Shown here one piece after another: positions 7,995 to 20,950 of a stretch of 26,445 bases of DNA (position 1 is its first letter; every line of letters starts with the position of its first letter). Where the stretch lies: the IMG/VR virus record IMGVR_UViG_3300042691_015169, positions 1 to 26,445 of that record; one strand, given 5' to 3'. Source of the DNA: a virus. The position numbers and the translations under genes are program-made. The notes under the pieces are model-generated. The model was not told the DNA's origin. It did not search any database and saw only the letters and a program-made list of their open reading frames with translations.

Positions 7995-8765
7995 TTACTT
8001 TTTTGATTTACGCTCAAGAAAAGAGTCAACTACTTTTGCTGCTTTTCTATAGGCTACGCCTGATGCCTCGGCTGGAGCAACACCGCCAGTGAGATACATG
8101 TTTGATGACGCGTACTTAAAAAAAGACTCGTCTACGTATTCGATGCGGTGAATGTCGTTCTTACGTTGGATAGGGATAACGTGCGCCAACGGCGTGCCTT
8201 GTTTGATCGTGAACTCAGAGTCTGTTTTGATGTTGAGAACTATATTTGCCATTTGATAATAGTCTGTGTTTACGATGTTTGGCAAAATCGAGTACTCTGC
8301 ATTTTCTTCATAAAACACTGGAAGAAACATTGAAGACCACCCCGGAGCTGTTTGTATTCTCCATGGTGTTATCAACTTTGGGTACGACATCTTTTCTATC
8401 TTGCGCGCTTCAGTCATCGGGCAGCTCCCAGTCTGCTCAAAGTGAAACCCGCTAGCCATTTGATAGTCGAGCTGCGGGTTAAACTGATCTGCCCGTATCT
8501 CCCAGACTCCTCGGTTGATGTTCGGAACAAACTTAAAAGTTGTCCAAGCTGGAATTGTTACTCCAAACTCTAAGAAATCAGAAATACCGGAGCAAGAACG
8601 AATTGACCCATCGCCTTTGTGCACTCGTCTGAACCACTGCGGAAGACGAGACTTGGAATTGACATAAGGCGCGTCATTGTAAAACCTGTTGTCTACTGTA
8701 GTGACTCTTATCGTTCCTGGCTTTACGCGCTTAAGCTTGTTGATATCTAGCTTCTCAATCTTCAT
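7995..8765 (-). CDS. DUF6065-like protein
   Basis: 256 residues; ATG overlaps the end of the halogenase gene by 11 bases. The layout fits a family seen in phages and bacteria near oxygenases and halogenases, which I believe is DUF6065, named from memory. Conserved-looking blocks are PQWFRRV, SGFHFEQTGSCP, WRIQTAPGWSSMFLP, ILPNIVNTDYYQMANIVLNI and the C-terminal FTIKQGTPLAHVIPIQR. The last block, with its small-residue turn and Pro spacing, suggests a cupin-like or double-stranded beta-helix barrel, but the usual metal-binding His set is not clear. The activity is unknown. Coupling to the halogenase gene suggests a shared pathway. Confidence 0.6.
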   Translation of the reverse strand: MKIEKLDINKLKRVKPGTIRVTTVDNRFYNDAPYVNSKSRLPQWFRRVHKGDGSIRSCSGISDFLEFGVTIPAWTTFKFVPNINRGVWEIRADQFNPQLDYQMASGFHFEQTGSCPMTEARKIEKMSYPKLITPWRIQTAPGWSSMFLPVFYEENAEYSILPNIVNTDYYQMANIVLNIKTDSEFTIKQGTPLAHVIPIQRKNDIHRIEYVDESFFKYASSNMYLTGGVAPAEASGVAYRKAAKVVDSFLERKSKK

Positions 8766-10236
8766 TTACCGTTTCCATTAGCGCTTGCTTATGATCTACT
8801 AGCTCTCTAGCATGTCTATTTATTCTGACTTCGTCAGACTTCTTTTCTACAATTTGTCGTATCTTAAGTCGATCAAGCGCGAGTGAGCTTGGCAGCGTCG
8901 GCACTAAATTCTGCCCCTGTGCGACATGTAAAAAGTTTCTTGACAGAAACATTAAGTGCCCTGCGTGCGGTACGTCTAGATGTCCCGGTGCTCTTTCACT
9001 CCAGAGATCTAAAAGCTCTTGAAGCGAGTCTGGAACCGGCGAGACAGAGATGTCTTTCCAAAAGTCAGTGTCTTGTCTGTCTGACATATAGTGAAGTCTC
9101 ATCATGTCTCGTATGTTGAGCATCATGTGAGCCATTTTTTTGTTGTAGTCTGCTGTTAACTTTTCTGCTCCGCGAACGTATGACGCACAGTATTCAGCAA
9201 TGTGCATTGCTTGAATAATCGTGCTACCAATACTTGTCGCCTCAAGCGGCTCAACAAAAGACGACGCCAAACCTACAGCTATGCAGTTCTTGTGCCACTG
9301 ATGCTCTAGGTACCCTGGGTCAAACTTAAATGAGCGAGCTGGCTCGATATTGTAGCCGCTAATTTTTCTTGCTTCTTCTACCGCTTCTTCTTCTGTCAAA
9401 TGACTAGACGAGTAAACGTAGCCGTTTCCTCTTCTCGTCTGCGTCGGTATTTCCCACATCCAGCCAGAAGATGCAGCTCTGGCTCTAGTGTACGGCCTTA
9501 TCTTTCCGTTTGGGTCAGACTCAGTTGGGAACGCGATTGCTGAATCAACAAGTAGATACTCCGAAAAAGACTTCCAAGAAGTGTTGTCGAGCTTTGACAT
9601 CAAATCGCGCTTAAAGCCAGTCGCGTCAATCCACACGTCGGCAGATACGCTCTCGCCGGAAGACAAATTTGCTGAGTCGATGTAGCCGTTTGGGTCAAGC
9701 ACTAAATTTGAAACTTCGTCATCAATAAACTTAATCATTCGTTTAAAGCAAACGCCGACTAAAAAGTCATTGAGTAAGAACGTATCAAAGTGATACTGAT
9801 TAGTGTTGTTGTGGAGATTCTCTCTGATGATTTTGTCTTGTACTAAGCCGATTGTTGACGTCTGAGTGGTGATGAGTTTGCTATTCTCTAAGTATGACAA
9901 GTATTCACCAATCAGACCATACGCTTCGACGTCGAAGATTGAAGCTACGCTATGGAAATAGTCAGGGATAGCCGTAGTCCAATTCTCAAAACGAATACCG
10001 TACTTGTGCGTCGCGCCTGTGTTCTTAATGACTTCTTCGACTCCGATATTGCACTTATCCATGAAAAAGCGCCAGTGTTCTGTGCTGCCTTCGCCGACGC
10101 CAACAATGCCAATCTTGCTAGACGACACATTTGTAATTTTGGAGTCTGGGAACGCTTGTCTAAGAACTATTGAAGTTATCAGCCCCGCCGTGCCGGAGCC
10201 AACAACGCAAAAGCTTAGACTATCGTGATGTCGCAT
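8755..10236 (-). CDS. FAD-dependent tryptophan-halogenase family protein
   Basis: 493 residues from ATG 10236, chosen over a TTG at 10254 because GAGG lies seven bases upstream. Hallmarks of flavin-dependent halogenases are all present: the FAD-binding GSGTAGL (13-19), GVGEGSTEHW (46-55), a lysine in THKYGIRFENW (K78) that lines up with the catalytic lysine of PrnA/RebH, DATGF (204-208), the diagnostic WxWxIP as WMWEIP (259-264), and SSFVEPLEATSI (325-336). These enzymes use reduced flavin, oxygen and halide to make HOCl or HOBr, which the lysine passes to an aromatic substrate. Viral members exist in marine cyanophages, one of which (VirX1) prefers iodide. No flavin reductase is visible, so the host would have to supply FADH2. 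The substrate is unknown; it could be free tryptophan or an aromatic side chain of a fibre. Confidence 0.9.
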   Translation of the reverse strand: MRHHDSLSFCVVGSGTAGLITSIVLRQAFPDSKITNVSSSKIGIVGVGEGSTEHWRFFMDKCNIGVEEVIKNTGATHKYGIRFENWTTAIPDYFHSVASIFDVEAYGLIGEYLSYLENSKLITTQTSTIGLVQDKIIRENLHNNTNQYHFDTFLLNDFLVGVCFKRMIKFIDDEVSNLVLDPNGYIDSANLSSGESVSADVWIDATGFKRDLMSKLDNTSWKSFSEYLLVDSAIAFPTESDPNGKIRPYTRARAASSGWMWEIPTQTRRGNGYVYSSSHLTEEEAVEEARKISGYNIEPARSFKFDPGYLEHQWHKNCIAVGLASSFVEPLEATSIGSTIIQAMHIAEYCASYVRGAEKLTADYNKKMAHMMLNIRDMMRLHYMSDRQDTDFWKDISVSPVPDSLQELLDLWSERAPGHLDVPHAGHLMFLSRNFLHVAQGQNLVPTLPSSLALDRLKIRQIVEKKSDEVRINRHARELVDHKQALMETVNED

Positions 10237-11383
10237 CAAAATACCTCGCAGCAAGTCTTGCTTTTTCTATCATTGGAAAATCAATTGGCCTCGGCGGAGG
10301 AAGCATTTGCACGGAAAACTGCCCCTCTCCGTTTATGCAGTCTTTTATCATCTGAGCCGTGACAGTTTCTGGGTCAATTCCAGGCATTCTGTTTACAACA
10401 AAAATGAGCACGGCTTCTTGCTGTAGTCTTCGCTCTGCACTCTTTAACTTTTCTAGCACTGCTGGGTGCGACGGGTGCTGCGCTTCAAGCGCGCTAAGTG
10501 TTTTGTACCTAAGTTGTTTTTTCAAATGAGTCTTAATTGAACTTGGCAAATTTCCTGTTTCGGAGAAGCCATGCCGTGGGTTGCCGTATCCGCGCATAAA
10601 TCGCTCCACTGGCATCGGCACTTCTGCTTCCTTAAGTTCTGCTATCATTTCTTCAGTGATTCCCAGCGTGTCAAGAAAAACCACCGCGTCTTTTGCAAAG
10701 TCTTCCGTCGCTAGACCAGCTATCTGCAGATCACGCCACTCAGCAAGCAGCCGCAATGTGCCGGAAAGTGTTCTAGACACTAATGTCACTACAGGCCAAT
10801 TTCTCCAAGTCATTCCAATTTTATGAATTGACTGAGAAGTAATGTGAGCAACTCCATTTACGTTTAGCAGCGGAACAAATCCACCAAGAGTTGACTGTTT
10901 CGCTAAAGAAAAATCTAATGGAGAAGGTTTAATCCCGTCGGTGGGGAAGTACATTCTTGGGCCGTACATCGTGTCGTCGCATCTGTTGTCCGCTGCGACT
11001 AATCGAGTTGAGTGGTTGATTACCTTTGTGTCAACTGACTTTAGAAAACCGAGAAATTGATGAGGGAGTAGCTCGATGTTTTCCCACGCATCAAAATTGT
11101 CTTCGTACACGTTCCAATGTAGAAGCTGAGAGTCCCCCGAGTCAGTGACTACTCTCATTGACCAAGCAGTCTGCCCGAAAGTCGGTATTGACTGAAAACG
11201 CAAAAGAGTACCAATTTCATGAGAAAACGCCTCGAAATCTAAGTACTCAGACTCGCCGGCGGGGGTGTCGTACACCACTGACACTGACTCGGCGGAATAG
11301 TCAATGAAAGCAAAGCACCCGTCAGGCGCGATGGAAAGCTCACTTATTGGTTTTACTACTGTAGCCATGTGACTAAACTGCAC
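10220..11383 (-). CDS. Unrecognised 387-residue protein between hydroxylase and halogenase genes
   Basis: I do not recognise this protein. It reads from GTG at 11383 (CTGGAAC just upstream), overlapping the hydroxylase gene by 28 bases; an in-frame ATG at 11368 is an alternative. Residues 1 to about 230 are strand-rich with many aromatics (FAFIDYS, HWNVYEDNFDAWENI, YGPRMYFPTDG, TWRNWPVVTLVSRT). Residues 230-387 are helical and charged (AVVFLDTLGITEEMIAELKEAE, SIKTHLKKQLRYK, LEKLKSAERRLQQEAVLIFVV). No signal peptide or membrane segment is seen. It overlaps the halogenase start by 17 bases. The tight coupling to both redox enzymes suggests a partner or substrate-presenting protein. Confidence 0.6.
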   Translation of the reverse strand: MQFSHMATVVKPISELSIAPDGCFAFIDYSAESVSVVYDTPAGESEYLDFEAFSHEIGTLLRFQSIPTFGQTAWSMRVVTDSGDSQLLHWNVYEDNFDAWENIELLPHQFLGFLKSVDTKVINHSTRLVAADNRCDDTMYGPRMYFPTDGIKPSPLDFSLAKQSTLGGFVPLLNVNGVAHITSQSIHKIGMTWRNWPVVTLVSRTLSGTLRLLAEWRDLQIAGLATEDFAKDAVVFLDTLGITEEMIAELKEAEVPMPVERFMRGYGNPRHGFSETGNLPSSIKTHLKKQLRYKTLSALEAQHPSHPAVLEKLKSAERRLQQEAVLIFVVNRMPGIDPETVTAQMIKDCINGEGQFSVQMLPPPRPIDFPMIEKARLAARYFDATSR

Positions 11384-11922
11384 TTTGTTCCAGACATCAC
11401 CGGATGCGCGATGTGCACGTACGGAAAATTAGAAGGGAACACTACTACGTCTCCTGCCTCTGCGTCTATTGTAACATCAAAAAACGGAAACTCGAGTTGC
11501 CCACCGGACTCTGGCGACTGAAGAAAGGCGACTACGCTGACAATTCTTTGATTGAGAGGGGCGTGGTCGTAGTGAGCATGATACTCGCCACCACCTGAGT
11601 ACTTTAAAAGTCTCCAACCTTCGTACCCGCTTGTCGAGACAATGTATTGTTCTCTGTAGTCTGGAAGTATCTCATCAAGAATTCGCTTAGAGATACCGCT
11701 AAACTTTTGCGCAAGAGCTGTTTGCGAATGCTCTAAATGAGTAATGTTTGCTTCTGCAGAAGTCCTGTAAGAAGATACTGAGCCAAGACCGACAGAAGAC
11801 GTTAGCCATTCGACCTCTGACCACGGGTTGTCGGTCTCTTTCTCTATCTCGTGCATAAAATCTGACGGATCTATAGCTGACTTATAGACGTTTATGCACG
11901 TCGCTATCTCTATGACATTCAC
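11356..11922 (-). CDS. 2-oxoglutarate/Fe(II) dioxygenase, prolyl-4-hydroxylase-like
   Basis: 188 residues; GTG start in a GTGA overlap with the previous gene. The C-terminal half is a double-stranded beta-helix of the P4H type: LLKYSGGGEYHAHYDHAPLN carries the iron ligands H117 and D119 (HxD), followed by VAFLQSPESGGQLEFP. The distal ligand H173 and the 2-oxoglutarate-binding K180 are in HIAHPVMSGTKCSLVTWL. All required residues are present, so it should be active, coupling decarboxylation of 2-oxoglutarate to hydroxylation. P4H-like enzymes act on proline or other side chains in proteins, while phage relatives often have unknown substrates. Nearby fibre genes encode about 500 residues of collagen-like Gly-X-Y sequence, an obvious candidate target. 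Confidence 0.87.
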   Translation of the reverse strand: MNVIEIATCINVYKSAIDPSDFMHEIEKETDNPWSEVEWLTSSVGLGSVSSYRTSAEANITHLEHSQTALAQKFSGISKRILDEILPDYREQYIVSTSGYEGWRLLKYSGGGEYHAHYDHAPLNQRIVSVVAFLQSPESGGQLEFPFFDVTIDAEAGDVVVFPSNFPYVHIAHPVMSGTKCSLVTWLQ

Positions 11923-12311
11923 GTTTTTTGCCTAATTACTTCGTCGAATACAGTATCCCCATTGACGACTACCTGTACTCTTTTGTCACCTTTAGTATTC
12001 ATTCTTGGTCTGAACTTTAACGCGTGCGCCTCTTTAATTTTTGGACTATGAGCGACATCATCTACAAAAAGTGCGCAGTCTTTTGACAGGTCTACAAATT
12101 CGTCTACAATGTCTAAAGACCAAACTCTGCCCGGCGTGTACAGATCTGAATACTCCACTGACTTTAGGCGTGGAGCAGCGACAATCTCAATCTCTGTGCT
12201 ATCTTCTGATACTTGAATCTCTAGTGAATAAGTTCTTGCTAACTTTTTGGCTTCTTCAGGTACTTCTCCGTTGCGACACATCTCTCGCGGGACAGATACG
12301 TATCTATTCAT
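11919..12311 (-). CDS. Unrecognised 130-residue protein
   Basis: 130 residues, ATG start; overlaps the gene before it by eight bases and the hydroxylase gene after it by four, so it is part of the same translationally coupled set. A short basic N-terminus precedes strand-rich sequence (YSLEIQVSEDSTEIEIVAAP, SKDCALFVDDVA, RVQVVVNGDTVFDEVI). The composition suggests a small soluble beta-sandwich or beta-barrel. No catalytic or metal-binding pattern is evident, and I cannot link it to a family. Its position immediately upstream of the hydroxylase suggests a structural or helper role for fibres or their modification. Confidence 0.6.
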   Translation of the reverse strand: MNRYVSVPREMCRNGEVPEEAKKLARTYSLEIQVSEDSTEIEIVAAPRLKSVEYSDLYTPGRVWSLDIVDEFVDLSKDCALFVDDVAHSPKIKEAHALKFRPRMNTKGDKRVQVVVNGDTVFDEVIRQKT

Positions 12312-12561: not shown

Positions 12562-13884
12562 CTAACTGTTGAGAATGATGTATGTTGAGCCTGAAGTAGC
12601 AGTAACCGTATCAGAGTCAGCAGTTGTCCCTGCTCGCACGTCGTAATTTAGACTAGACGGAGTTGCCTCAGTAATTATCACTATTGCTCCTCCTCCGCCA
12701 GCTCCGCCTCTTTTTCCAGTCCCTCCCGTCACTGCAGGAGAGCCGGTTCCACCAGCGCCTCCAGCTCCTCCAGCGCCGCCAGCGCCGCCAGCATAGTGCG
12801 GGCCGGCTGTGCAGCACGGAGCGTGAATAGTTGCTGAATGGTTATGGTGATACGAGTGGTGACCTGCGGGGATGTGAATCTTACCTGATGTGGTAGCTGG
12901 ATGATGGTGGTGGCCGCAGCAAGTATGTGGTTCGTGAATAACTGCTGAGTGATGGTGGTGATCTGTGTACCCAGGCGCCGCTGCTCCCGGTGTACCAGTG
13001 GCACCAGTGGCGCCGTTTGGCCCAGCTGGAGAAGTTGTCCCGGCAGAGCCAACTGCTCCGCTTACTCCAAGAGACATAATTGTGCCAGTGCCAGTGATTG
13101 TTCTGGCGACTATTGCCACGACTCCGCCGCCTGCCCCACCTGCGCCGCCTGCGCCGCCTGTAGCTGCAATGGGTGGGTTTGGAGCAGAGCCACTCGTTCC
13201 GCTTGCGCCTGAAGCGCCGGTGTTCCCCTTGCCTCCCGCTGCTCCGACAGTCGTCGCGTTTGGTGGCCATGCCCCTGTTGCGCCTGTAGCTCCTGCAGAT
13301 CCAGCAGACCCCGCTTTTCCAGGCCAAGTGTTTGTAAACCCAGACGGGGCAGGGCTTGCGTTTGTGTATGAAGTCGCCGCTATGCCAGTAGATCCAGCAG
13401 ACCCAGCAGATCCACCAGCTAAAAGAACAGGAACTGAACTTCCGTACGTAGCGTCGAGCGCGACGCCTGTCACTGCCTCTATTCTTTTGACTAAATACTC
13501 CGGCAGCACAGAAACCCCCGGATTTGTTGCTCCGCCGCCTTGACCGCCAATGCGATACGAAATTGCTGAAGAAACGTTTCCAGCTACTGTTCCCGTTGAT
13601 ACAGAAGAACCGGGTGAAGTTATTGTTCCATTTGTTGAACCACTGGTATTGCCAGTAACTGTCCCGATCCCAACAACTCCGTTAATTGTTGCAGTGTTCT
13701 TTACAAACACGCGAAACCCGTTTGTTAGTAGTACGTTGCCGAGCGGAACTGTCAAGTTGTTGTAGTACTTGTCAGAAGTAAGAGTCACGGTACCGCTAAT
13801 TGTTACGTCGCCATCTGCTCCTGTGCCATAGACCCAGTCGTTGCTAACGCGCGACGCACTTTGCTCAATTCTTGATATAGCCAC
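12562..13884 (-). CDS. Glycine-rich tail-fibre/adhesin with His/Cys cluster
   Basis: 440 residues from GTG 13884 (AGGTG upstream), one base after the preceding stop. Residues 1-60 (WVYGTGADGDVTISG, YYNNLTVPLGNVLLTNGFRVFVKNT) match the N-terminal part of the neighbouring 253-residue protein, so the two are paralogues. Most of the rest is Gly/Ala/Ser-rich (GGAGGAGGAGGGVVAIVAR, GGAGGAGGAGGAGGTG, GGAGGGGAIVII), as in glycine-rich phage adhesin tips. Between residues about 308 and 363 lies an insert with 18 His and 4 Cys as two CC pairs. HxH motifs in T4 long-fibre tips bind iron in a trimer, so a metal-stabilised tip is a fair inference. Role: probably host-receptor binding. Confidence 0.78.
   Translation of the reverse strand: MAISRIEQSASRVSNDWVYGTGADGDVTISGTVTLTSDKYYNNLTVPLGNVLLTNGFRVFVKNTATINGVVGIGTVTGNTSGSTNGTITSPGSSVSTGTVAGNVSSAISYRIGGQGGGATNPGVSVLPEYLVKRIEAVTGVALDATYGSSVPVLLAGGSAGSAGSTGIAATSYTNASPAPSGFTNTWPGKAGSAGSAGATGATGAWPPNATTVGAAGGKGNTGASGASGTSGSAPNPPIAATGGAGGAGGAGGGVVAIVARTITGTGTIMSLGVSGAVGSAGTTSPAGPNGATGATGTPGAAAPGYTDHHHHSAVIHEPHTCCGHHHHPATTSGKIHIPAGHHSYHHNHSATIHAPCCTAGPHYAGGAGGAGGAGGAGGTGSPAVTGGTGKRGGAGGGGAIVIITEATPSSLNYDVRAGTTADSDTVTATSGSTYIILNS
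12790..12963 (-). other. His/Cys-rich metal-binding module within the fibre protein
   Basis: Residues about 308-364 of the 440-residue fibre. The segment contains two related halves, HHHHSAVIHEPHTCC and HHNHSATIHAPCC, separated by a further HHHH and HIPAGHH. Eighteen histidines and four cysteines in under 60 residues strongly suggest metal coordination. It is flanked on both sides by Gly-rich sequence. Confidence 0.7.
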
Positions 13885-13885
13885 G

Positions 13886-14646
13886 CTACACCTGCTGTAC
13901 GTAGTAGTGGGTGCCCGCGTTCTGCCCAGTCACGTCTGTCGAGACTGAAGCAGGCAGCGCTGATGCAGATGAGACAACAAGAATTACTCCGCCGCCTGCG
14001 GGTGCGGTCCCTGGCGCTTTAATGTACCCAGTACCAGTTGCTGGGCCAGAGATATACCGTGCTGCTATGATGATCACACCGCCACCGGCTTGCCCTGACC
14101 CGCCAGCTCCTCCGCGAAGAAACGTTGGCCCGCCTGACGCTGTAATTGAGTAACCAGTGATTGCTTGACGAGCGACTTTAAAGTAGTCTGATCCGCCAAG
14201 AGCAGCTGTTGGTGCAGTAGCAGTGTAGCCAGTCGCGCTTCCACCAAGCGAGTGAGTCACTGCAGTTGTTGCGGCACCACCTTGCATAATTGATCCAGCA
14301 GTCGAGTACCCCGCAGTAAACCCGATAGTCGCGTTGTTGCCGTCAAACTTCAATGTTCCTTTGACAAAGATGCGGTACCCGTTTGGCGCAAGTCGCACTC
14401 CCGAGTTGATTGTCAAATCATTGAAGTACAAGTCTCTTGTCATTGAATAGACACTTGCAGACGGCGCCATGCTCAAGACCGTTGTTGTCCCGTCTAGCGT
14501 GGCGTCTCCGTCCATGCCGGTGCCGTACACAGAGTCAACTCCTTCGTTGTAGTACGCTGCCCACACAGAACCATCCCACTGCCAACTCTTAGAGCCGACT
14601 GTGTAAATCTGTGCTGTGTATGGGGAGGAGGGAAATGTAATTGGCA

Positions 14647-14647
<1 letters not shown>
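13886..14647 (-). CDS. Tail-fibre protein, paralogue of the His-cluster fibre
   Basis: 253 residues; its ATG overlaps the stop of the collagen-like fibre gene by one base (TAATG). The N-terminus (MPITFPSSPYTAQIYTVGS, then WQWDGSVWAAYY) is the short phage-fibre module that often carries an S-x-W-x-W-D-G-S-x-W pattern. A stretch from about residue 36 (DSVYGTGMDGDATLDG, then YFNDLTINSGVRLAPNGYRIFVKGT) is shared with the downstream 440-residue protein. The C-terminal half is Gly/Ala-rich (LRGGAGGSGQAGGGVIIIAARYISG). It lacks the His/Cys cluster. It is probably a short fibre or tip component that trimerises through the shared domain. Function is inferred from composition and context. Confidence 0.75.
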
Positions 14648-18375
<3,728 letters not shown>

Positions 18376-18390
18376 TCAAACTTAAGCTAA

Positions 18391-20187
18391 CTAGCCGATT
18401 ACGACTACTCTATACTGATCTGTTGTTGGCGCTGTCGCAAACGCGATGGTGACTGCGCTTGTTGTAGTTGCGGCAATATCCGCGATCACGACTGCGTAGG
18501 GAGAAGCGACCTCATGGATTTGAACAATGACATCGCGTGTGCCGAGGTTGTGAGTAACCGTGTAGCTCGTGTTCGAGCCGTCACCGACGTTTGCCGCATA
18601 ACGTGTCATGAAGCCAAGGTTTGTCTTCGCTCCAGCGGCGTCAGACGCGCCAGTGCCGCCGTCAGCTACCGCGATATCTGTACCGTTCCAAACGCCTGTC
18701 GTGATTGTCCCAACGGATGTAAGACTTGAAGAAGTAACTCCAGAACCGAGAGCGGACCCGCTAAGAACTGTAGTTCCATTGATCATGTAGACCTTGCCAG
18801 AGGCAAGATTGAGATGCTCAGAAGAAGTCCAAGCGTCAGTGCTGTCTACCCAGCTAAAAGTCTTATCTGTTGTGCCTTTTAGTGTGATACCGCCGCCATC
18901 TGCGCCGGCGTCAGACGGAGTTGCAGTCGACCCTAGCTCGATGTTCTTATCGTCTACTGTCACTGTTGTTGAATTGACAGTTGTTGTCGTACCGTTGACT
19001 GTTAGGTCGCCGGTGATCGTGAGGCTGCTTAGCGTACCAACAGACGTGATCGAGCTAAGGTTACCAGTAGTGATAACCGTGCCATCTACATCTGGCAAGG
19101 TGATTGTTCTATCGGCCGTAGGGTCAGTGACTGTCAGAGTTGTCTCGTACTCGTCTGCTGTTGCGCCTTCAAACGTAATGCCGGTTGTAAGAACTCCAAG
19201 AGAAGTAATTGCTGAGAGGTTTCCTGTTGTGACAACAGTGCCGTCTACGTTTGGCAGAGTAATTGTTCTGTCTGCTGTCGGGTCTACAACAGTGAGAGTA
19301 GTTTCATAGATGTCGTCGGTTGCGCCTTCGATAACGATGCTTGCGCCTGTAACGGTAAGACCGTTTGCGTAAAGGTTTGTAATCGTTGGGTTTGAAGAAA
19401 GAACAACGTTGTTCCCGCTGCCAACATAAGAAGTAATTGCGTTACCGTTAACGCTAAAGCTGTTACCGGCGCCAGCGGTGTCAAACGTTTTATTTGTGAA
19501 AGTGTCTTGAGTAGCCTTACCAACCAAAGTGTCTGTCGCGTTTGGTAGCGTGAGAGTACGATCTGCGGTCGGGTCAGTAACTGTTAGCGTTGTTTCGTAC
19601 GCGTCAGCAGTTGCACCTTCAAACGTGATTGAAGCGCCATTTATTGTAAGACCAGCAAACGTTGGGCTGTATGTTGCGTCCAGCGTGAGGTCGATAGCGC
19701 CGTCGCCAGCGTCGTCGTACGACGCTGTAATGCCGCTGTGTGAACCATTTGTGACAAGCTGCGCGCCTACGATGTCTTGAACCTGCTCTGTGCTTACGGT
19801 CGCACCGGAAATTGCGGAATCAACGTAGCCTTTAGAAGCAGCATGAGCATTGTCTGTTGGAGTTGCTGCAACTTTAATTTGAGAGTTTTCATCTCGAGCG
19901 ACAATGCTAGTCGCAGTAGCGTCTGACGTGCCGCTGATAGTGAGAGTAACTGCGCCGTTGCTTTCGCTTACAGAGAGGTAGCTCGAGTACGTTCCGCCTG
20001 ATGTGACGCTGTGGAGCATCTTTCTCCACGCCGAGCCCGAGTACACTTTAATTGTGTCTTCGGTCGAGTTATAGATCATTCGACCTTCAAAGTTGTTGCT
20101 CGACGGGTCAGAAGCAAGAACCTCAAACTTGCCGTTCAAAATTTGATTTTGATTGAGATCTAAGTTAGTTACAAATTTTGTCGCCAC
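18391..20187 (-). CDS. Tail-fibre protein with repeated beta modules (598 residues)
   Basis: GTG start at 20187. The first 60 residues (MATKFVTNLDLNQNQILNG, then GRMIYNSTEDTIKVYSGSAW) form a typical phage-fibre N-terminal module. The middle holds three copies of a roughly 50-residue unit, EGATxDxYETTLTVxDPTADRTxTLP, followed in two copies by DGTVxTTGNLS. A segment DLTVNGTTTTVNSTTVTVDDKNIELGS follows, of the kind seen in long structural phage proteins. The C-terminus (YAANVGDGSNTSYTVTHNLG, then VIVQIHEV) is a small beta domain also seen at the end of the next fibre gene. Probably an elongated trimeric fibre shaft. No enzymatic motif is visible. Confidence 0.82.
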   Translation of the reverse strand: MATKFVTNLDLNQNQILNGKFEVLASDPSSNNFEGRMIYNSTEDTIKVYSGSAWRKMLHSVTSGGTYSSYLSVSESNGAVTLTISGTSDATATSIVARDENSQIKVAATPTDNAHAASKGYVDSAISGATVSTEQVQDIVGAQLVTNGSHSGITASYDDAGDGAIDLTLDATYSPTFAGLTINGASITFEGATADAYETTLTVTDPTADRTLTLPNATDTLVGKATQDTFTNKTFDTAGAGNSFSVNGNAITSYVGSGNNVVLSSNPTITNLYANGLTVTGASIVIEGATDDIYETTLTVVDPTADRTITLPNVDGTVVTTGNLSAITSLGVLTTGITFEGATADEYETTLTVTDPTADRTITLPDVDGTVITTGNLSSITSVGTLSSLTITGDLTVNGTTTTVNSTTVTVDDKNIELGSTATPSDAGADGGGITLKGTTDKTFSWVDSTDAWTSSEHLNLASGKVYMINGTTVLSGSALGSGVTSSSLTSVGTITTGVWNGTDIAVADGGTGASDAAGAKTNLGFMTRYAANVGDGSNTSYTVTHNLGTRDVIVQIHEVASPYAVVIADIAATTTSAVTIAFATAPTTDQYRVVVIG

Positions 20188-20200
20188 GGCTCACTGCTTT

Positions 20201-20950
20201 CTAGGTTAAATACGCGTATCCGGAGAACGGAGAACTGAATGAAATAGTCACTTGTGTATCGCTATTATATGTTATGTCACCAATTACGACAGTTCCAGCG
20301 CTGTCAACTACCGTAACGGAAGGCCTTCCGCCGAGCGCGTGAGTAACTGTCCAAGTAGACGAAACAGACGACTGAGTATGAACGTGTCGTTGATTTGAAG
20401 TCAACGCCGAGTCTAGCGAATAAGCCGGGCTTGCTGGCCACGCGCCGTCGGCTTTTGGTCCGTAGTAGCTGCCAGTGTCAGAGTCAATGTAAATATCTCC
20501 ATCAACGCCGACTAAGTTAGAAGGTAGCCCCGAGTCAATTAGTACCCCTGGGCCGCGCGGTCCTGCTGGGCCTTGCACTACTATAGGGTTGCTAGCAGTA
20601 GTCCCTTCAGTGCCACTGCTAATTTCTGATCTAATGTCTACATCTGACCCGTCGCCGTACGGGAGAAGAGCGTAGAACGACTGAGGCTTTACTCCGTAAA
20701 GGCGAACGCTGACTTTGTACGCCCAGCCTTCTGGCCTAAGAAGAGCGTTATCAGTTACGGGAAGATCTATCTCAAACGCGCCATTTATATCTAGCGCTGC
20801 TGCTAAAGTGCTTTCAACAATTACTGCGTCATCTTCATCTACAACTCTTGTAGTCGGAGTAAATGTTACTCTGCCCTTTGCTGGCTCTCCTAAGGCAGTT
20901 AAGTAGGTTCCATAGACGGTACGCGTAAGAACGTCATTAGGCCATGGCAC
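20201..20950 (-). CDS. Fibre or tail-tip protein with C-terminal beta domain (249 residues)
   Basis: GTG start at 20950 with GGAG seven bases upstream; the ATG nearby is out of frame. The N-terminal half (RTVYGTYLTALGEPAKGRVTFTPT, then AALDINGAFEIDLPVTD) looks like an immunoglobulin/beta-sandwich module that extends phage tail proteins. A very short collagen-like bit (QGPAGPRGPG) and a YIDSDTGSYYGPK module follow. It ends with STWTVTHALGGRPSVTVVDSAG, the same domain type that ends the 598-residue fibre. It is the first fibre gene of the run and probably connects the fibres to the baseplate or tail tip. Function is inferred. Confidence 0.75.
   Translation of the reverse strand: MPWPNDVLTRTVYGTYLTALGEPAKGRVTFTPTTRVVDEDDAVIVESTLAAALDINGAFEIDLPVTDNALLRPEGWAYKVSVRLYGVKPQSFYALLPYGDGSDVDIRSEISSGTEGTTASNPIVVQGPAGPRGPGVLIDSGLPSNLVGVDGDIYIDSDTGSYYGPKADGAWPASPAYSLDSALTSNQRHVHTQSSVSSTWTVTHALGGRPSVTVVDSAGTVVIGDITYNSDTQVTISFSSPFSGYAYLT

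What the first reader, a model, noticed from the sequence alone, without database searches (positions are those of the whole stretch)
12790..12963. Duplicated His/Cys module in a fibre tip
Eighteen His and four Cys occur in under 60 residues, arranged as two similar halves (HSAVIHEPHTCC and HSATIHAPCC). In a trimer this would offer many metal sites. T4 fibre tips use HxH motifs with iron, but the CC pairs and the duplication are different and may add redox-sensitive or metal-dependent folding.
Basis: partly seen in the sequence, partly recalled or inferred. Interest (0 to 1): 0.62.

Follow-up and report, generated by a model that had tools for sequence, protein, structure and literature searches.

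The report
Histidine-packed tip loop in phage adhesins
A tail-fibre tip protein of an uncultured actinobacterial phage carries a short stretch packed with histidine, and nearly 100 related phage tip proteins carry a histidine-rich insert of quite different sequence at the same site, which hints that these viruses use metal-binding tips to grip their hosts, although no metal binding has been shown.

Summary
Residues 308-365 of a 440-aa protein (12562-13884, minus strand) hold all 18 His and all 4 Cys of the protein; no other gene in the window exceeds 5 His per 58 residues. The two halves are a real duplication (30 nt, 80% identical), and relatives have four copies.

The protein is not T4 gp37-like or a gp38 family member. 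It is a Gly-rich tail-fibre tip protein, last of the fibre genes. Its N-terminal domain matches the host-range adhesin of haloarchaeal Hafunaviridae (hhalign 97%). The module occupies one fixed insertion site. Among 111 complete long homologues from IMG/VR, about 99 carry a His-bearing insert there (7-38% His, 26 to ~290 residues). Insert sequence and length are hypervariable, while His content persists. Cys is optional and usually occurs as CC next to His.

Homologues without His exist: two have Tyr/Asn-rich repeats at the same site, a few distant ones have no insert, and the adjacent 253-aa paralogue never has one. His/Cys are therefore not needed for the fold, and the HxH spacing of T4 fibres is not enriched.

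Best reading: a hypervariable, probably metal-coordinating, receptor-contact segment of an actinophage adhesin. Adhesin role likely; metal binding untested.

The parts
12562..13884 (-). 440-aa Gly-rich tail-fibre tip protein (putative adhesin) that carries the module
   Evidence: ORF; about 99 His-bearing homologues among 111 complete long ORFs; N-terminal domain of the family matches HRTV-15 gp33 'putative adhesin' by hhalign
12790..12963 (-). His/Cys module, residues 308-365: 18 His, 4 Cys; hypervariable insert between two Gly-rich tracts
12916..12951 (-). first half-repeat HSAVIHEPHTCC (residues 312-323)
   Evidence: codons; direct repeat D2 (12933-12962)
12811..12840 (-). second half-repeat HSATIHAPCC (residues 349-358)
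   Evidence: codons; direct repeat D2 (12822-12851)
13657..13884 (-). conserved N-terminal beta-rich domain (about residues 1-76), shared with the 253-aa paralogue and with haloarchaeal adhesins
   Evidence: (pLDDT above 90 over most of it)
12964..13437 (-). Gly-rich scaffold before the module (about residues 150-307)
   Evidence: invariant Gly columns; model
12667..12789 (-). Gly-rich C-flank GGAGGAGGAGG...GKRGGAGGGGAIVIIT that closes the insert site (about residues 366-406)
   Evidence: model confidence
13886..14647 (-). 253-aa paralogue with the same N-terminal domain and no His insert
14647..18336 (-). 1229-aa collagen-like tail fibre protein (Gly-X-Y repeats)
   Evidence: PHROG tail fiber hits down to E 3e-146
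18391..20187 (-). 598-aa virion/tail fibre-like protein
20201..20950 (-). 249-aa protein with a tail-fibre-like N-terminus (residues 3-106); first fibre gene of the cassette
   Evidence: phrog_14726; similar start to a fibre protein of OQ999401
12304..12546 (-). 80-aa protein directly downstream of the adhesin; relative in 38 of 111 homologous loci (possible assembly partner, inferred from position only)
11919..12311 (-). 130-aa protein next downstream; relative in 49 of 111 homologous loci

Best explanation
The module is the hypervariable, surface-exposed insert of a Gly-rich tail-fibre tip adhesin of a phage infecting (probably freshwater) Actinobacteria. Shown: it sits at one fixed insertion site, between two conserved Gly-rich tracts, in the last fibre gene; inserts at this site diverge and change length much faster than the scaffold; about 99 of 111 complete long homologues have a His-bearing insert there (7-38% His). 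Inferred: the scaffold packs as a Gly-rich (polyglycine-II-like) tip that displays the insert as a loop. The dense His side chains, with CC pairs in some lineages, coordinate transition metals (Zn, Fe, Cu, Ni or Co), so that metal holds together a loop of otherwise low sequence complexity and shapes the receptor-contact surface. Sequence can then drift, and repeats can expand or contract, to follow the host while the ligand chemistry stays. The metal step is the weakest link.
For: Position and company: downstream end of a fibre cassette with PHROG tail-fibre hits, syntenic with the fibre region of Actinomycetia phage DSL-LC01. Homology of the family's N-terminal domain to HRTV-15 gp33 adhesin, hhalign probability 97.2%, E 3e-11; [quoted passage not shown] Insert census. 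In 61 homologues His is 30.4% of the insert and 1.0% elsewhere. Hypervariability: at flank identity 0.5-0.6 the module is 0.36 identical with 54% gapped columns against 17% in flanks. His codons: 177 synonymous vs 66 nonsynonymous changes in close pairs. CC pairs: 23 of 24 distinct CC contexts have a His shortly before. Five Tyr/Asn-rich inserts keep only two tight HxH runs, HTHYHWH and YHYHYNHSH. Actinobacterial host: WhiB in the window and in 14 of 39 relatives; WhiB is treated as an actinophage marker in PMC10202952.
Against: No metal binding was measured. AlphaFold2 gives the module pLDDT about 44, i.e. no structure as a single chain. Two homologues (L239, L265) fill the same site with Tyr/Asn/Thr/Pro repeats and no His, a few distant ones have no insert, and about a dozen have His fractions of 10% or less, so metal cannot be needed for every member. 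His-His spacings of 1 to 4, as in HxH or HxxxH sites, are depleted relative to shuffles. Much of the apparent conservation of His in alignments is what any His-rich sequences would give (0.77 observed vs 0.61-0.65 in shuffled controls). Homology to the haloarchaeal adhesin covers only 56 residues, a domain the His-free paralogue also has.
Confidence: 0.5

Rival explanations
1. His-rich receptor-contact loop without metal: the insert is a hypervariable adhesin segment whose His (and, in some relatives, Tyr/Asn) side chains bind host glycans, teichoic-acid phosphates or proteins directly by hydrogen bonds, stacking and pH-dependent charge.
For: The same site holds Tyr/Asn/Thr-rich repeats in L239 and L265 and mixed Tyr/Asn/His in five others, as if polar ring residues in general were wanted. 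Fast divergence and indels. Hypervariable segments of Gly-rich adhesins are held to determine receptor choice in hafunaviruses (PMC8651126, PMC9229481).
Against: Ordinary receptor loops are not known to me to be 20-38% His over 50-220 residues; such a strong, family-wide bias to one residue, plus CC pairs beside His, is hard to explain by glycan contacts alone (inference).
Confidence: 0.27
2. Metal as structural cement rather than receptor chemistry: the insert is a His/Gly polymer that is cured by Zn or Cu like the His-rich ends of mussel byssal collagens or Nereis jaw protein, stiffening or cross-linking the ends of collagen-like fibres.
For: His 30% and Gly 12% of the inserts, next to a 1229-aa collagen-like fibre. 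Mussel preCols combine a collagen core with 20-100 residue His-rich ends that coordinate Zn, and metals stiffen worm jaws through His (PMC6477608).
Against: One module per adhesin at a defined loop site, not at chain ends; no evidence for cross-linking; hypervariability is not expected for a purely mechanical cement.
Confidence: 0.13
3. Low-complexity filler: a tolerated loop in which short repeats expand and contract by slippage and happen to be His-rich, with no selected role for His.
For: Repeat number varies between relatives (2 vs 4 HSAxIH copies; tandem NPHPAGHNPHVAG in L205/L203).
Against: His-bearing inserts of unrelated sequence in about 99 of 111 homologues, mixed CAC/CAT codons, and excess of synonymous over nonsynonymous changes at His codons.
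Confidence: 0.07
4. Ferrojan-horse metal bait: the tip carries iron so that the phage adsorbs through a host iron or metal uptake receptor.
For: Phage tails with His-bound iron have been proposed to do this (PMC11705849); the inserts could hold several metal ions.
Against: The proposal concerns siderophore-bound iron receptors, known to me chiefly from Gram-negative outer membranes; the hosts here are probably Actinobacteria. HxH motifs of the T4 type are not enriched.
Confidence: 0.03

Closest known systems
Gly-rich tail-fibre adhesin of Hafunaviridae (HRTV-15 gp33, HF2 HrrHF2_490)
   Same: Homologous N-terminal domain (hhalign 97.2% over 56 residues), Gly-rich scaffold interrupted by variable segments, last fibre gene of the tail module, small gene downstream
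   Different: Haloarchaeal adhesins are Asn/Gly/Ser-rich with no His module; the window protein has a single large His/Cys insert and belongs, by gene content, to a phage of Actinobacteria
gp38 adhesins of T-even phages (Salmonella phage S16 gp38, PF05268/PF21721)
   Same: Small Gly-rich tip protein with conserved Gly tracts separating variable segments; alike in architecture
   Different: No profile similarity to S16 gp38 (hhalign probability 0.2%); no PF05268 or PF21721 match (S16 gp38 itself matches); no PDB fold match
T4 gp37 receptor-binding needle and other HxH iron-binding fibre tips (e.g. Alteromonas phage R22Y gp12)
   Same: His residues at a fibre tip that could bind metal
   Different: HxH spacing not enriched in the inserts, no sequence or fold match, much higher His density, CC pairs, hypervariable sequence
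Metal-binding His-rich domains of mussel preCols and Nereis jaw protein
   Same: His-rich low-complexity segments beside collagen or Gly-rich sequence (PMC6477608)
   Different: Analogy of composition only; no homology claimed or tested

Membership tests
Gly-rich adhesins related to those of Hafunaviridae | Homologous N-terminal domain | tested here: met
   hhalign probability 97.2%, E 3.3e-11, 56 columns
Gly-rich adhesins related to those of Hafunaviridae | Gly-rich tracts separating hypervariable segments | tested here: met
   invariant Gly columns; module diverges faster than flanks
Gly-rich adhesins related to those of Hafunaviridae | End of the tail/fibre gene module | tested here: met
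Gly-rich adhesins related to those of Hafunaviridae | Mutations change host range | not testable with these tools
   needs isolates; reported for hafunaviruses in PMC8651126
T-even gp38 adhesins (PF05268, PF21721) | Match to the GP38 / Gp38_N profiles or to S16 gp38 | tested here: not met
T-even gp38 adhesins (PF05268, PF21721) | Polyglycine-II helical sandwich fold | tested here: inconclusive
   Gly-rich parts modelled with fair to high confidence without helix or strand; no PDB match; coordinates could not be inspected
T4 gp37-type HxH iron needle | Enriched HxH motifs | tested here: not met
   spacing 2 seen 464 times vs 518 expected (z -3.4) in 51 dereplicated inserts; only the small Tyr/Asn group has strict HxHxH runs
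T4 gp37-type HxH iron needle | Trimeric intertwined fold with bound iron | not testable with these tools
   no multimer or metal prediction available
Metal-binding protein | Binds metal ions | not testable with these tools
   composition only
Diversity-generating retroelement target | Reverse transcriptase in the same phage | tested here: not met
   0 of 33 records with PF00078; records are fragments, so not a full exclusion

The most novel reading that the evidence does not exclude
A widespread class of phage adhesins whose receptor-contact loops are built mainly of histidine and are folded by bound metal rather than by a hydrophobic core, so that the phage can change loop sequence and length almost freely while keeping a working, metal-loaded tip with up to some 60 His per chain.
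Probability: 0.35. Interest if true: 0.8.

Novelty: new variant of a known kind. Interest (0 to 1): 0.6.

Why it matters
Receptor-binding loops of phages are usually diversified by point mutation, shuffling or retroelements within ordinary protein chemistry. A family in which the loop is typically 20-38% His, hypervariable in sequence yet constant in that chemistry, would show another way to keep a diversifying tip folded, would make aquatic actinophages carriers of transition metals, and would give short, testable metal-binding peptides. It also labels a recognisable adhesin gene in phages of aquatic Actinobacteria, where receptors and host ranges are largely unknown.

Tried and rejected
Matches to annotated phages: none by tblastn for the window protein, its N-terminal domain or four relatives; a fifth, distant relative (L217) gave weak Halorubrum virus hits only. 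Pfam and PHROGs on the window protein: nothing. PDB by sequence and by fold: nothing meaningful; the weak hit to YcdH (E 1.5), which I know as a zinc-binding protein with a His-rich loop, was discarded as His composition. Viral fold library: global matches to collagen-like proteins of Pandoravirus/Orpheovirus and uncultured phages, TM about 0.2-0.4, judged to reflect Gly-rich repeats. Diversity-generating retroelement: no reverse transcriptase. T4-like HxH spacing: not enriched. Conservation of His in protein alignments as proof of selection: dropped, because shuffled modules align almost as well; the codon comparison was used instead, with pairs that are not independent. Search of GTDB genomes: one weak fragment (L109), no host link.

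Full report
What is there. The count of 18 His and 4 Cys in 58 residues is correct. The rest of the protein has none of either, and no other gene of the window exceeds 5 His per 58 residues. The two halves are a diverged duplication at DNA level, 30 nt at 80% identity; in relatives such as L005 the same unit occurs four times.

Where it is. The window is a 26-kb viral contig. Its gene order (recombinase, primase/helicase, small terminase, calcineurin-like phosphoesterase, tail fibres, tryptophan halogenase, glycosyltransferase, WhiB) matches that of the 129-kb Actinomycetia phage DSL-LC01 from Dishui Lake (primase/helicase 81% identical), a lake from which uncultured phage genomes were assembled (PMC10611076). 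WhiB genes in the window and in 14 of 39 related records point to an actinobacterial host; WhiB is used as an actinophage marker (PMC10202952). DSL-LC01 itself has collagen-like fibres but no His-rich protein in its fibre cassette, so the cassette appears exchangeable. 'Freshwater' rests on DSL-LC01 and is otherwise my inference.

What the protein is. It is the last of five consecutive fibre genes on the minus strand: a 249-aa protein with a tail-fibre N-terminus, a 598-aa protein, a 1229-aa collagen-like fibre with strong PHROG tail-fibre hits, a 253-aa paralogue, and the 440-aa protein. The 80-aa and 130-aa genes that follow have relatives in 38 and 49 of 111 homologous loci. No PHROG, Pfam or PDB entry matches the protein. 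The N-terminal domain of the family does match the 'putative adhesin' gp33 of Halorubrum virus HRTV-15 (reached through the distant relative L217; profile comparison 97.2% over 56 columns). [quoted passage not shown] Membership in the T-even gp38 family was tested directly with S16 gp38 and is not met.

The module is an insert at a fixed site. In every full-length close relative a His-rich stretch lies between a Gly-rich tract and the flank YAGGAGGAGG...GKRGGAGGGGAIIIIT or a close variant. In 61 homologues the stretch is 30.4% His against 1.0% for the rest of the proteins. With wider searches, using the part before the insert as query, 212 complete ORFs with this domain were found. Of these 111 are long versions; about 99 of them have an insert with 7-38% His, and most of these exceed 15%. 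Inserts run from 26 to about 290 residues and belong to many unrelated-looking sequence types (HSAxIHxPHT; HHPHNDGPHGGxHHWDGHxWHA; NPHPAGHNPHVAG; HHHTPGGHHH), which is what makes the shared composition telling. The insert boundaries were set by a simple rule, so the fractions are approximate.

Exceptions matter. L239 and L265 fill the same site with Tyr/Asn/Thr/Pro repeats and no His; five others are about 20% Tyr and 20% Asn with their His in two tight runs, HTHYHWH and YHYHYNHSH. A few distant Gly-rich homologues lack an insert, and the 253-aa paralogue never has it. So neither His nor Cys is required for the scaffold. Cys is optional: it is absent from most long inserts; where present it is often CC, 23 of 24 CC contexts having a His shortly before, with a recurrent HCCxxH[DN] pattern.

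Selection. The insert diverges faster than the flanks and is full of indels (identity 0.36 and 54% gapped columns where flanks are 0.5-0.6 identical with 17% gapped). In close, ungapped pairs His codons show 177 synonymous and 66 nonsynonymous differences, others 505 and 244; since eight of nine single-base changes in a His codon alter the residue, His is being kept. The pairs are not independent, so this is a direction, not a rate. Protein-level conservation of His was not used, as shuffled modules give nearly the same value (0.61-0.65 vs 0.77).

Structure. AlphaFold2 gives a confident beta-rich N-terminal domain and mostly well-defined Gly-rich parts without helix or strand, compatible with polyglycine-II packing but not proof of it. 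The module has pLDDT about 44 in the window protein and below 50 through most of a 169-residue insert in L067. Single-chain prediction without metal is silent on metal binding. Fold searches found no solved relative and only Gly-repeat matches among viral models.

How it probably works. A Gly-rich tip protein displays one large hypervariable segment to the host. The segment's constant feature is imidazole density. The simplest chemistry that keeps such a low-complexity, fast-changing segment folded and useful is transition-metal coordination, which needs ligands but little sequence. This is inferred; T4-type HxH geometry is not the rule here, because spacings of 1 to 4 between His are depleted relative to shuffles. 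The main rival is a loop that contacts the receptor directly through polar ring residues, to which the Tyr/Asn-type inserts lend weight.

Novelty. I found no description of such inserts in the searchable literature (open-licence papers only), and no annotated phage in the INPHARED set gave a match to a His-bearing member by tblastn. Individual parts are known: Gly-rich adhesins with variable segments, HxH iron sites in fibre tips (PMC11705849), and metal-cured His-rich structural proteins (PMC6477608). The combination is a new variant of a known kind.

Noticed in passing
L010:4103-4957 (+): Another tail fibre in a phage carrying the His-module gene has a classical run THTHTLSAHTHTLGSHTHTLSNHTHAITVDG, so T4-type HxH fibres and the His-rich adhesin coexist in one phage.
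   Followed up: no
L242, L254, L261, L262, L267 (insert regions): Tyr/Asn-rich inserts (NPTNYGSN repeats) with two conserved tight runs HTHYHWH and YHYHYNHSH; a better candidate for strand-like metal sites than the window's own module.
   Followed up: partly
L026:5663-7522 (+), residues about 430-570: This homologue carries an extra C-terminal domain (phrog_4245 match; looks like a DUF1566/Lcl-type domain) after the Gly-rich flank.
   Followed up: no
window 8755-10254 (-) and 11356-11922 (-): Phage-encoded tryptophan halogenase (Pfam E 1e-98) and a 2OG-Fe(II) oxygenase downstream of the fibre genes; a halogenase is also in DSL-LC01 at the same place, so fibre-linked modification enzymes may be a trait of this phage group.
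   Followed up: partly
L205, L203, L201, L221, L224 (insert regions): Inserts made of near-perfect tandem units such as NPHPAGHNPHVAG, a possible record of recent repeat expansion at the adhesin tip.
   Followed up: no
window 13886-14647 (-) and 12562-13884 (-): The adhesin and its His-free 253-aa neighbour are paralogues; in the Tyr-type phages (L239, L265 and others) the short paralogue lies downstream instead of upstream.
   Followed up: partly
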